From Actinocatenispora sera (GTDB lineage: Bacteria; Actinomycetota; Actinomycetes; Mycobacteriales; Micromonosporaceae), in NCBI RefSeq assembly GCF_018324685.1, contig NZ_AP023354.1:3286001-3350000 (forward strand): DNA of 64,000 nt. Direction: 5' to 3'. Of this stretch, positions 9,059 through 29,784 are shown in pieces (within the stretch, counting starts at the first letter, position 1; the number at the start of each line of letters is the position of its first letter). The notes under the pieces were generated by a model. It saw nothing but the letters and a program-made list of their open reading frames with translations, was not told the origin of the DNA and did no database searches. A program made the position numbers and the translations under genes.

Positions 9059-9392
9059 CGTCTACTGGGTCAATCTCGACCCGGCCTGGCCGGCCGAGTG
9101 CAACAAGATCCGTCCGGCCGTGATCGTCAGCAACGACGGAGCGAACCGGCGTGCCGAGCAACTGGGCCGCGGCGTGCTCACGGTGGTCCCGGTCACGTCC
9201 AACACCACCCGGATCTACCCGTTCCAGGTGCTGCTCCCCGAAGGCGCCGGCGGCCTGCGCGGCGCAGCCAAGGCCCAGGCCGAGCAGGTCCGGTCGGTGT
9301 CGGTGGGCCGGCTCACCCAGCGCCTCGGCACCCTGGACCAGCCGCTGCTGGCCGATCTCGACCGGGCCCTGCGCCTCCACCTCGCCCTCTGA
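9045..9392 (+). CDS. mazF: MazF/PemK family toxin (endoribonuclease)
   Basis: A 115-residue toxin that cuts mRNA at short sequence motifs and halts growth when freed from its antitoxin. The family hallmarks are all present: RRGDVYWVNLDPAWPAE at the start, RPAVIVSNDGAN, LTVVPVTSNTTRIYPFQVLLP and the C-terminal AKAQAEQVRSVSVGRL with the conserved Gln-Arg helix. Start at 9045 gives the canonical MRRGDVYW; an in-frame ATG three codons earlier (9036) is possible. It overlaps the antitoxin gene by 14 bases. One base separates its stop from the stop of the convergent AraC gene. Confidence 0.92.
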   Translation: MRRGDVYWVNLDPAWPAECNKIRPAVIVSNDGANRRAEQLGRGVLTVVPVTSNTTRIYPFQVLLPEGAGGLRGAAKAQAEQVRSVSVGRLTQRLGTLDQPLLADLDRALRLHLAL

Positions 9393-26299: not shown

Positions 26300-27499
26300 T
26301 CAGAAGGCGGCGATGCCGTTCGGGGTGCCGTTGCCGGTCAGCCCGTCGTAGCCGGGCAGGGCGGTGCACAGGTAGTCGCCGCCGCAGTCGACCCCCTCGG
26401 CCGCGCCGGTGACGATGTCGTGCAGTTGCTCGCCGTGCGCGTAGAAGTACGACGCGTCCGGGTACCGGTCCGGATTGCCGGCCAGCGCGATGATCCCGGC
26501 GACGATCGGGGACGACGCGCTGGTACCGCCGGCCACGATCCAGCCGGTCTCCTGCTCGGTCTCGTACACCGCCACCCCGGTGTTGGGGTCCGCGACCGCC
26601 GCGATGTCGGCGATCATCCGGTTGGGGCAGTTCGGATCGTGCTGCCAGGCCGGTTTGGCGAGGTAGGCCGAGCAGCCGGTGCCCGACCCGCTCCACGCGC
26701 TCTCGGCCCAGCCCCGGGCGCTGCCGTCCCGGTGCAGGCTGGTACCGCCGACCGCGATCACGCTCGGGTACTCGGCCGGCGCGGTCGGGTTGCCGTAGCC
26801 CGAGTCCCCGGAGGACGCGACGACCGCGACACCGGGATGGCGGTAGCTGGCCGCGTACTGGTCGACGCCGTGGCCGTCACCGCCGCCGTAGCTGTTGGAG
26901 ATCTCGGTGGCGCCGAGTGCCGCCGCGGTGTCCACCGCGGTGGACAGCGAGCCGGCATCGGGGTAATCGGCCTCCACCAGCAGGATGTGGCAGTCGGGGC
27001 AGACCGCGGACACCATGTCCAGGTCGAGCGCGATCTCGACCGACCAGCCTGCGTCCTCCGGCAGCGGGCTCGCCTGGCCGTCCTGGTTGACCTTCCGGAA
27101 GCAGCCGTTGGCCGTGGTGCAGGCGGGCAGCCCGTACGTGTCGCGGTAGACGGCGAGGTCGGCCTCGGCGTTCGCCGCGTCACCCGCGTCCACGATCGCG
27201 ACCGTCTGGTCCGCCCCGCCGGTGGTCGGCAGATCGTAGGCGGACCGCAGGTCGGCCGGGCCGTACCCGGCGGGCAGCGCGGTACCGCTCGCCGGGCCGC
27301 GGACGCCATGCCCGCCGCGCAGGTCGGACCGTACCTTCGCCAGGCAGCGGAGCTGGCCGGGCCGGGCGGTCGGGCAGACGTCGCGGACCGAGCCGGCGCC
27401 GCCGGCCGCGGCCGCGGGCCCGGTGCCGGCGGCGACACCGGCCACCGCGGCGATCAGCGCCGCCACCAGTGCGGTACGGCGGATGGGGGAACGTCGCAT
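26300..27499 (-). CDS. Secreted sedolisin-type (S53) serine peptidase without propeptide
   Basis: A 399-residue exported peptidase. Signal peptide at about residues 1-32 (ALVAALIAAVAGVAAGTGPAAAA). The sedolisin catalytic set is intact: ExxxD as E155 and D159 in VEIALDLDM, oxyanion Asp D232 in ASSGDSGYG, nucleophile about S327 in GGTSASSP, and a C-terminal calcium-site-like DIVTG with GYDGLTGNGTP. The usual 170-200-residue pro-domain is missing; only about 45 residues separate signal and catalytic domain. It starts 20 bases after the stop of the upstream secreted gene, so the two form an operon. ATG follows GGAGGTGATCAGG. Confidence 0.87.
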   Translation of the reverse strand: MRRSPIRRTALVAALIAAVAGVAAGTGPAAAAGGAGSVRDVCPTARPGQLRCLAKVRSDLRGGHGVRGPASGTALPAGYGPADLRSAYDLPTTGGADQTVAIVDAGDAANAEADLAVYRDTYGLPACTTANGCFRKVNQDGQASPLPEDAGWSVEIALDLDMVSAVCPDCHILLVEADYPDAGSLSTAVDTAAALGATEISNSYGGGDGHGVDQYAASYRHPGVAVVASSGDSGYGNPTAPAEYPSVIAVGGTSLHRDGSARGWAESAWSGSGTGCSAYLAKPAWQHDPNCPNRMIADIAAVADPNTGVAVYETEQETGWIVAGGTSASSPIVAGIIALAGNPDRYPDASYFYAHGEQLHDIVTGAAEGVDCGGDYLCTALPGYDGLTGNGTPNGIAAF

Positions 27500-27519
27500 C
27501 CTGATCACCTCCACGGGGT

Positions 27520-29784
27520 TCACTGGGCCGCCGCGAGCTGGTACGCGGCAGTGATGGTCTGCTCGATCGCGTCACCGTTCGCGTCGGTGGCGCGGACCCG
27601 CAGCATCGGCGCGGTGCCGGCGGCGCTGGCCGGATTGCGCCAGGTCACCGCGTAGGTGCCGGCCGCGCCGAGGACGTGCGCGGGGCGCCAGGTGTCGCCG
27701 TGGTCGAAGGAGACGGACACCTTCGCCGAGGCGATCGGCGAGGAGGATCCGGCCCCGTCGTAGCTGACGTGTCCGACCCGCAGTCCCATCGCCTGGATCG
27801 CGGCGGAACTGGTGTTTTGCCGGTCGACCGCCAGCCGGTAGTTCAGGGTCAGGACCGGCAGCACCTGGCAGGGTGTGTCGCCGTCCTGAATGGCGCAGTA
27901 GTCCCCCGCCGGCAGCGGACTCCCGGTCGTGCCGGGCGAGTACTTGACGGTCACCTCGGTGTGGGTCTTCGTCCACAGGGTGGCCCCGCTGTCGGCGGGC
28001 ATGGTGGTGTCGAGCACGCCGCGGTAGGTGGCGTCGCTGTCCGGGACACCGGTGACCGTCGCGCCCAACGCGCGGTCCTGGTCGGCGATCAGGGTCCCGT
28101 TGCGGTACAGGATGAAGTGGGCCTGGGCCGGGTACAGGGCGGAGCCGCTGGTGTGGTCCGGCACGGCGTCGTGCTGCATCGGCATGCCGAGCGAGAGCGC
28201 ATCGCCGGCGCTGCACGAGTAGCAGACGTGCCGGGCGCCGGTGAACTGGCCGAGGCCGGGAACGATCGGACCGCGTCCCCACTCGATCGAGTACTCGTGA
28301 CCGGCCAGGTAGGTGTGCCCGTCACCGGCGAGGTCGGCGGTCGCCGTGGCCACCGCGTTACCCCACTGCCCGCTGTCGGCGGTGCCGACGTACATGGTCA
28401 CGTCCGCAGGCAGCTGCTGGGCCGGGATCGGGCTCGCCATCGCCGGAACACCCCACTGCGGCGCGATCTGCGGGTCGGTCGGTCCGCCGAGCAGCGTCGT
28501 GTACCGGCCGTCGTCGCCGGGGTCGTGGTACAGGTGATGATGCACGGTGGCCAGTTGATCCGACCGCACCCGGTAGCTCTGATCGGCCGCGACGCCGTCG
28601 TCCGAAGCGAACGCGACGTCGTAGCGGTAGCTCTGGTCGGCCGGCGCGCCGATCCAGTGCACCAGGTAGTGCAGCCGGCCGGTGGTCGCCGCCGGCTGCG
28701 GGTTGACGTAGATGGGCGCGTCGCCCGACTGGTTGTTCTCGAAGCCGAAGCTGGCGCCGGTCGCGTCGAAGCGGTAGTACGTGGTCACCAGCACGTCCTG
28801 GACGGCCGGTTTCGGTGTGCTCACCGTGACCGGTGACGTCGCGGTGCGCAGGTCCAGGGTGACCTGGCTGGGCGCGGTCGAGGCGGCGACGGTGAAGTCG
28901 TCGACCACCACGGTCAGGTTCTTGCTCTGGTCGCCCTGCTCGTCGAAGGAGTCACCGAAGGTCTGCGCGGTGTAGTGCCCGGCGGGCACCATCACCCGCT
29001 CCGAGGATCCCTGCAGCTCCACGACCGGATCCGCACGGGCGGCCGAGTCCGTGTTGGTGATGAACACCGGCAGGTAGTCCGGCGTGTTCCCGTCCGCGTC
29101 GATCCCGTTGACCTGCAACGTGTACAGCGGGTAGTGCGGCGTCACGGTCTTCGCGGTGACGCTGGCCGCGTCCAGGCTCATCCGGGTCATGCCGGCGAAC
29201 AGCGGCGTGCTGCCCGGGGCACGACCGGCGGCGACGTCGGCGCCGATCCGGTGGCGGGCCGCCGTGGCGAGTGCGCTCGCGGACTTCGCGGTCAGGTACC
29301 CGCGGGCGGTGGTACCGCGCACCGCGGTCAGCGTGACCCCGGCCGGCGCCGTGGGAGTCACCCCGTCGGCGAACGACAGCCGGACCGGGATCCGCGCCCC
29401 GTCGTCGATGCCGCGCGCGGCCATCGTGGTCACGTCGAACAGCGACAGGTCCAGCTGCCGCCCCAGGTAGGGGGTGGCGACCGCCGGAATGACGTAGTGG
29501 TCGCCGGCGGCGGTCTGCACCGAGTGCACGCCGCCGTGCCGGCTGGGCTCGACCGTGTACGTCGGCTTGCCGGTGCCCGCGCCACTGACCGTGACGTGGT
29601 CACCGGTCGGCAGCGTCACCGTCGTGGTGTCGGTGGCGGGCAGCGGCGTCGCCGTCGGCGTCGTCGGTGCCGCGCCGGCCGGCGCGGACAGCCCGAGCAA
29701 CGCGGCCACCGCACCGCCGGCCCACAGCGCCCACCAGCGCCGCGGCAGCCCTGGAACCGTCCTTCTTTCCGGATCTCGTCGCAT
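27520..29784 (-). CDS. Large secreted protein resembling a subtilase without its catalytic domain
   Basis: A 754-residue exported protein. After a signal peptide (WWALWAGGAVAALLGLSAPAGAA) comes TVTLPTGDHVTVSG, VHSVQTAAGDHYVIPAVA, LDLSLFDVTTMAARG and IPVRLSFADG, wording typical of the N-terminal prodomain of large actinobacterial S8 peptidases, ending near residue 185 with RGYLTAKSASALATAARH. Those enzymes then have DTG, HGTH and GTSMA motifs; none is here. Instead it continues into beta-rich sequence like their C-terminal half (YTLQVNGIDADGNTPDYLPVF; PAGHYTAQTFGD). ATG follows AAGGGG. It is the first gene of an operon with the S53 peptidase and may chaperone or target it. The family parallel is from memory. 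Confidence 0.6.
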   Translation of the reverse strand: MRRDPERRTVPGLPRRWWALWAGGAVAALLGLSAPAGAAPTTPTATPLPATDTTTVTLPTGDHVTVSGAGTGKPTYTVEPSRHGGVHSVQTAAGDHYVIPAVATPYLGRQLDLSLFDVTTMAARGIDDGARIPVRLSFADGVTPTAPAGVTLTAVRGTTARGYLTAKSASALATAARHRIGADVAAGRAPGSTPLFAGMTRMSLDAASVTAKTVTPHYPLYTLQVNGIDADGNTPDYLPVFITNTDSAARADPVVELQGSSERVMVPAGHYTAQTFGDSFDEQGDQSKNLTVVVDDFTVAASTAPSQVTLDLRTATSPVTVSTPKPAVQDVLVTTYYRFDATGASFGFENNQSGDAPIYVNPQPAATTGRLHYLVHWIGAPADQSYRYDVAFASDDGVAADQSYRVRSDQLATVHHHLYHDPGDDGRYTTLLGGPTDPQIAPQWGVPAMASPIPAQQLPADVTMYVGTADSGQWGNAVATATADLAGDGHTYLAGHEYSIEWGRGPIVPGLGQFTGARHVCYSCSAGDALSLGMPMQHDAVPDHTSGSALYPAQAHFILYRNGTLIADQDRALGATVTGVPDSDATYRGVLDTTMPADSGATLWTKTHTEVTVKYSPGTTGSPLPAGDYCAIQDGDTPCQVLPVLTLNYRLAVDRQNTSSAAIQAMGLRVGHVSYDGAGSSSPIASAKVSVSFDHGDTWRPAHVLGAAGTYAVTWRNPASAAGTAPMLRVRATDANGDAIEQTITAAYQLAAAQ

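What the first reader, a model, noticed from the sequence alone, without database searches (positions are those of the whole stretch)
26300..29784. Secreted two-gene peptidase set: subtilase shell without catalytic domain plus sedolisin without propeptide
The upstream gene reads as the prodomain of a large actinobacterial S8 peptidase followed directly by its C-terminal beta-rich part, with no DTG, HGTH or GTSMA motif. The gene 20 bases downstream encodes an S53 peptidase with all catalytic residues (E155, D159, D232, S327) but no pro-domain. Each protein appears to lack exactly what the other provides. The shell may act as a separate folding helper, inhibitor or substrate-targeting subunit. 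I know of no described system of this kind, but I cannot search.
Basis: partly seen in the sequence, partly recalled or inferred. Interest (0 to 1): 0.72.

Follow-up and report, generated by a model that had tools for sequence, protein, structure and literature searches.

The report
Peptidase paired with decatalysed subtilase shell
Soil actinobacteria secrete a protein-cutting enzyme together with a large partner that looks like an old protease with its cutting domain removed; the two genes have stayed side by side across many species, and what the partner does is still unknown.

Summary
Two minus-strand genes lie 20 bp apart: a secreted 754-aa protein (shell) matching the N- and C-terminal parts of large actinobacterial S8 peptidases with the catalytic domain missing, and a secreted 399-aa S53 peptidase with E155, D159, D232 and S327 intact and no Pro-kuma_activ prodomain. 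The pairing is not a local accident: of 44 non-redundant shell loci (all found by shell queries), 38 have an S53 gene directly downstream, one is a shell-S53 fusion, one keeps an S53 remnant and four have none. Shell-linked S53s fall on one side of the S53 tree, shells on one side of the S8-tail tree, and partners co-diverge. The S53 keeps a short two-cysteine pro-segment shared by the sampled subclass, with or without a shell, and a published S53 of the same layout (E40) is active when expressed alone. Some shells, and the fusion, lack the prodomain-like part. A folding helper is therefore unlikely; a dedicated non-catalytic accessory subunit (targeting, binding or stabilising) is the best reading. 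No structure or complex model was obtained; physical binding is inferred.

The parts
27520..29784 (-). Shell gene, 754 aa from ATG 29784; S8-peptidase architecture without catalytic domain
29671..29784 (-). Shell signal peptide (read by eye, about 38 aa)
   Evidence: inference
29166..29670 (-). Shell N-part, homologous to the N-terminal/prodomain-like part of large S8 peptidases (query residues about 36-229 in S8 hits)
29124..29166 (-). Approximate junction where S8 relatives carry the catalytic domain
27523..29124 (-). Shell C-part (ORF residues 243-776), tail shared with S8 peptidases; last ~110 aa weakly like the C-terminal part of sulfite dehydrogenases
27503..27512 (-). Ribosome-binding site GGAGGTGATC of the S53 gene (by eye)
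26300..27499 (-). S53 peptidase gene, 399 aa from ATG 27499
27278..27403 (-). Short pro-segment with two conserved Cys (C42, C52)
   Evidence: processing site inferred from E40
26303..27277 (-). S53 catalytic domain, aligned with mature kumamolisin-As
27035..27037 (-). Codon of catalytic E155
27023..27025 (-). Codon of catalytic D159
26804..26806 (-). Codon of D232 (oxyanion Asp)
26519..26521 (-). Codon of catalytic S327

Best explanation
A conserved two-gene secreted peptidase unit. An S8 peptidase gene lost its catalytic domain, most simply once, and its remaining N- and C-terminal parts became a separate secreted protein that works with an S53 peptidase made from the next gene. The S53 folds and matures with its own short two-cysteine pro-segment. 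The shell most likely binds the S53 outside the cell as a non-catalytic accessory subunit (substrate or surface targeting, or stabilisation), so that an old subtilase architecture now uses a foreign catalytic subunit in trans. Shown: sequence anatomy, gene order, fusion, phylogenetic pattern, co-divergence. Inferred: physical binding, location and role.
For: Shell N- and C-parts flank the S8 domain in S8 relatives. Of 44 non-redundant shell loci, 38 have an S53 directly downstream on the same strand (shell end to S53 core 135-467 bases in the 38 linked rows of the S53 set); called frames overlap by 4 bases in L117, L124 and L135. One natural fusion, L107, 998 aa, shell then S53 in one frame. 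In the S53 tree of 71 rows the 38 shell-linked rows lie on one side with one truncated row, L082; of the 46 rows that came by S53 queries, 15 are linked and all 15 lie there. In the tail tree of 107 rows, 43 of 44 shells and the fusion lie together with one long-branch S8 row. Partner distances correlate, Spearman 0.79 over 37 pairs, 0 of 2000 permutations as high; the 5 paralogous pairs of this genome, r 0.87, rank 3 of 120. Shell-linked S53s have no C-terminal extension (0 of 38, at most 6 aa), while 24 of the 33 non-linked rows, from this genome and its family, carry 246 aa or more. S53 was found in 0 of the 55 loci L136-L190 fetched by the same shell query; 53 of the 55 hold an S8-flagged frame. 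dN/dS against genus mate G050 by NG86 is 0.44 for the shell and 0.36 for the S53.
Against: No structure or complex was modelled. Four shell loci lack an S53 (L096, L099-L101) and L129 keeps an open shell frame beside a 31-aa S53 remnant. 10 of 11 S53 loci sampled in other genomes of the phylum have neither shell nor an extension above 57 aa, so the 'accessory part in cis or in trans' contrast does not hold outside the family sample and its rows are not phylogenetically independent. Co-divergence partly reflects species descent. All 44 shell loci were found by shell queries, so the 38 of 44 describes shells, not S53s. The dividing branches are weakly supported (77/96 and SH-aLRT 81). YN00 failed for the shell, so its constraint rests on one rough estimate.
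Confidence: 0.5

Rival explanations
1. The shell is a trans-acting folding helper or inhibitor: its S8-type prodomain-like part replaces the missing S53 prodomain.
For: The shell keeps the S8 N-part in most loci L111-L135. An S8 prodomain can act in trans (CspB prodomain co-expressed in trans, PMC3567191 passages). Stand-alone subtilisin propeptide-like inhibitors exist, one encoded beside subtilisin genes (SUB1-ProM, PMC6993865 passages).
Against: Shells of L095-L098 and L102 lack model positions about 151-226, and the fusion L107 lacks about 133-213, i.e. the prodomain-like stretch. The S53 rows sampled have only the short pro-segment, shell or not. E40 of the same layout is active alone.
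Confidence: 0.15
2. The shell has its own extracellular role (for example surface binding) and is only co-transcribed with the S53, without physical contact.
For: Shells exist without S53 in four loci; the one in L100 has an ECF-type sigma factor gene two genes away.
Against: The four exceptions nest within the S53-linked shell group, so they look like losses. Fusion in L107; single-origin pattern; correlated divergence.
Confidence: 0.22
3. The shell is the substrate or the anchoring target of the S53, for instance a decoy cleaved to release or activate the peptidase.
For: Co-secretion and fusion place the shell in reach of the active site; inference.
Against: No test was made here; no conserved cleavage linker was looked for.
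Confidence: 0.08
4. The shell is a decaying S8 pseudogene that happens to precede an S53 gene.
For: It lacks the whole catalytic domain.
Against: Open frame kept in the 43 rows of one group (L103 cut by a contig end) across Actinocatenispora, Streptomyces, Actinacidiphila, Catenulispora, Amycolatopsis and others; dN/dS below 1. L132 does look broken.
Confidence: 0.02

Closest known systems
Endopeptidase E40 of Actinoallomurus A8 (PMC6739405, passages)
   Same: S53, 398 aa, signal 1-27, putative pro 28-73, mature from 74, active-site positions 156/160/231/329; close to 155/159/232/327 in 399 aa here
   Different: Its sequence was not compared here; expressed from its gene alone and active; no partner is mentioned in the passages read
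Kumamolisin / kumamolisin-As (S53)
   Same: Whole mature catalytic domain aligns, E 2e-25
   Different: Classical S53s carry a large prodomain (PMC6278154, passages); here a short pro-segment and a separate shell gene
Large actinobacterial S8 peptidases (frames of about 1,050-1,460 aa)
   Same: Same N- and C-terminal parts as the shell
   Different: They keep the S8 catalytic domain, and none of the 55 loci L136-L190 has the S53 next door
SUB1-ProM and other stand-alone subtilisin propeptide-like inhibitors (PMC6993865, passages)
   Same: Catalytic-free relative of a subtilase precursor part encoded near a clan SB peptidase gene
   Different: Small I9-type proteins acting on S8; the shell is mostly C-terminal tail and is paired with S53
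CspBA/CspC of Clostridioides (PMC3567191 passages; PMC6636752 listing only)
   Same: Inactive subtilase relative encoded with an active one
   Different: Csp pseudoproteases keep a degenerate catalytic domain (recalled for CspC); the shell has none and the partner is S53
Lipase foldase Lif (PMC3352829, listing only)
   Same: Separate protein acting on a secreted enzyme
   Different: A folding role is not supported here

Membership tests
S53 (sedolisin/serine-carboxyl peptidase) | Catalytic Glu, Asp, oxyanion Asp and Ser at kumamolisin-equivalent places | tested here: met
   Profile aligned to 1sio residues 2-349; invariant in 11 of 11 rows of A5 and of A3
S53 (sedolisin/serine-carboxyl peptidase) | C-terminal calcium-site region (DI/DV...G...GYD...TG) | tested here: met
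   D361, G365, G383, D385 invariant in 11 of 11 rows; the ligand assignment is recalled, not from a call
S53 (sedolisin/serine-carboxyl peptidase) | Large N-terminal prodomain (Pro-kuma_activ) | tested here: not met
   No PF09286 hit in P0001 or in any of the 11 A5 rows; about 74 aa precede the catalytic domain. Three other loci of this genome do have it. The claim is therefore: S53 catalytic domain of a short-pro subclass
S53 (sedolisin/serine-carboxyl peptidase) | Proteolytic activity at acid pH | not testable with these tools
   E40 precedent only
S8 (subtilase), for the shell | Asp/His/Ser catalytic domain PF00082 | tested here: not met
   No Pfam hit, no DTG or HGT, no GTS downstream of the ATG
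S8 (subtilase), for the shell | Homology of flanking N- and C-parts to large S8 peptidases | tested here: met
I9-type propeptide inhibitor/chaperone | I9 fold docking onto the catalytic domain | tested here: inconclusive
   No Pfam I9 hit among the 40 A4 rows at E up to 0.01; no fold model was obtained
Steric foldase (Lif-like) | Partner inactive without it | not testable with these tools
   Bench test needed; E40 argues against

The most novel reading that the evidence does not exclude
Catalytic-subunit replacement between peptidase families: a subtilase lost its own catalytic domain once and recruited an S53 peptidase from the next gene, giving a two-subunit secreted holoenzyme that has been kept in several actinobacterial families, spread as paralogous cognate pairs, and re-fused at least once.
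Probability: 0.4. Interest if true: 0.7.

Novelty: new variant of a known kind. Interest (0 to 1): 0.52.

Why it matters
If the pair is a holoenzyme, an extracellular peptidase can exchange its catalytic domain for one of another family in trans while keeping its non-catalytic architecture, a route not described in the papers found by the searches. It also gives clean pairs for testing what the long uncharacterised tails of actinobacterial S8 peptidases do, since here the tail is a separate gene. Because the S53 E40 is studied as a glutenase, a natural partner for such enzymes could matter for stability or specificity (inference).

Tried and rejected
Folding-helper reading: tested through prodomain-like deletion in side lineages, shell-free short-pro S53s and E40; demoted. 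Hidden subtilase domain in the shell: no Pfam or motif support; one of the 40 A4 rows has a weak PF00082 hit (5.5e-05), and A4 includes 14 S8 fragments. 'Accessory part in cis or in trans' as a general rule: holds for the rows, not for the phylum sample. Solved-structure search with the shell profile gave only weak matches to sulfite oxidase/dehydrogenase, sialidase/Asp-box and FN3 chains (best E 0.008). The S53 C-terminal extensions gave no shell match in the own-genome gene calls; the one scanned, L023, is Kelch plus carboxypeptidase-regulatory-like, and L024, L028 and L031 look similar by eye. Gene calls in related loci come from a simple ORF and codon-position script, not a gene finder. 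Capped lists: the scan kept 80 of 98 relatives; searches scored 8 and 15 candidates a genome, seven and four. Papers: open-licence PMC only; searches listed no description of this pairing among the titles and abstracts seen; two searches gave nothing of use.
Full report
What is there. On the minus strand, a 754-aa protein with a signal peptide read by eye (ATG 29784, stop 27520) is followed after 20 bp by a 399-aa S53 peptidase, also with a signal peptide (ATG 27499, stop 26300), with its own ribosome site. Pfam sees no domain in the first and only PF00082 (E 3e-10) in the second; no Pro-kuma_activ.

What the shell is. Searching 121 genomes of the family, the shell's N-part (about residues 36-229) and C-part (about 243-775) match, apart from full-length shells, separately the two ends of open frames mostly of about 1,050-1,460 aa. 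In L104 the shell model matches residues 4-240 and 606-1136 of a 1,138-aa protein whose S8 domain is at 230-479. The scan of named genomes kept the best 80 of 98 relatives; of the 55 loci L136-L190, 53 hold an S8-flagged frame and L146 and L174 hold fragments. The shell is thus an S8 architecture from which the catalytic domain is absent at about window 29124-29166.

Where the genome lies. Shells are found in 4 of 4 genomes of the genus.

Is the pairing real. This genome has 18 short-pro S53 loci and 5 shell loci; all 5 shells sit directly upstream of an S53. Of the 25 shell loci L111-L135 (Streptomyces, Actinacidiphila, Actinocatenispora, Catenulispora, Amycolatopsis, Labedaea, Streptosporangiaceae, Tetrasphaera and unnamed Actinomycetes records), 24 have an S53 downstream (broken in L132) and L129 has only its last 31 aa. 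With the family sample and without two duplicates there are 44 shell loci: 38 linked, 1 fusion (L107), 1 remnant (L129), 4 without S53 (L096, L099, L100, L101). All 44 were found by shell queries, so the rate describes shells, not S53s. As a control, 0 of the 55 loci L136-L190 have an S53 at E 1e-10.

Seen from the S53 side, the 46 rows that came by S53 queries (18 of this genome, 28 of the family) include 15 with a shell upstream.

History. In a tree of 71 S53 catalytic domains the 38 shell-linked rows lie on one side, together with one row cut by a contig end (L082); the label needs 2 changes against a shuffled mean of 23.7 (the dividing branch has support 77/96 and the bootstrap had not settled). 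In a quick tree of 107 tails, 43 of 44 shells and the fusion group together with one long-branch S8 row (SH-aLRT 81), and L109 lies with S8 enzymes. The loci without S53 nest inside, which points to later loss. Distances of 37 partner pairs correlate at Spearman 0.79 (0 of 2000 permutations), and the five pairs inside this genome at r 0.87, rank 3 of 120. Species descent explains part of the first number. Pairwise dN/dS against genus mate G050 is 0.44 for the shell and 0.36 for the S53 by NG86; YN00 gave 0.10 for the S53 and failed for the shell.

What it does not show. The S53 is not short of a prodomain because of the shell. A pro-segment with two cysteines is present in 69 of 71 S53 rows, linked or not; the exceptions are L082 (truncated) and L083 (a TGA interrupts the segment). 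Across the phylum 9 of 246 genomes, this one included, have such an S53 at E 1e-60; the shell profile is found at E 1e-50 in 1 of 246, this genome, with four candidates scored per genome. 11 of 11 S53 loci fetched from the other 8 genomes have no shell within the stretch, and their six best matches in the 71-row set are all non-linked rows. E40 of Actinoallomurus, 398 aa with a putative 46-aa pro-segment, was secreted and active when its gene alone was expressed in S. lividans, and N-terminal sequencing confirmed the predicted mature form (PMC6739405, passages); its sequence could not be compared here. Shells of L095-L098 and L102 lack model positions about 151-226, and the fusion lacks about 133-213, the prodomain-like stretch.

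How it most likely works. The parts that persist are the first N-terminal segment and the C-terminal tail of the shell, and the S53 catalytic domain. Shell-linked S53s carry no C-terminal extension (0 of 38), while 24 of the 33 non-linked rows of this genome and family do; but 10 of 11 phylum-wide S53s have neither shell nor an extension above 57 aa. I read the shell as an accessory subunit that binds the S53 in trans, probably for targeting or stabilisation.

Novelty. Searches of the open PMC library listed stand-alone propeptide-like inhibitors, Csp pseudoproteases and lipase foldases but no S8-derived shell paired with an S53. The parts are known kinds; the pairing is a new variant.

Noticed in passing
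L019:3719-14230, L105:3338-13918; also L020, L021: A larger gene set: regulator of about 970 aa (AAA plus LuxR-type HTH by Pfam in L019; similar length and start in L020, L021, L105), shell, S53, a 400-aa protein with repeated 'DVWAVG'-like motifs (seen in L019 and L105; not checked in L020 and L021), and a second S53 with a long C-terminal extension that lies in the non-shell part of the tree.
   Followed up: partly
L099, L100, L101: Shells without S53, each next to a 374-386-aa protein (the one of L100 has no Pfam hit); in L100 an ECF-type sigma factor gene follows.
   Followed up: partly
own genome, 18 loci: Large expansion of short-pro S53 peptidases in one genome, several with long C-terminal extensions; the one scanned (L023) has Kelch and carboxypeptidase-regulatory-like domains.
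   Followed up: partly
L134:5848-11527: Two shell genes in tandem followed by one S53 in an uncultured Tetrasphaera record.
   Followed up: no
L092, TGA at 9360 (same place as L083): The S53 of the second pair in G050 has an in-frame TGA in its pro-segment and no signal peptide-like reading before it: pseudogene, frameshift or sequence error.
   Followed up: no
L104:6098-12547: A complete S8 peptidase with shell-like ends sits next to the same kind of AAA/LuxR-type regulator as the shell operon of L019.
   Followed up: no
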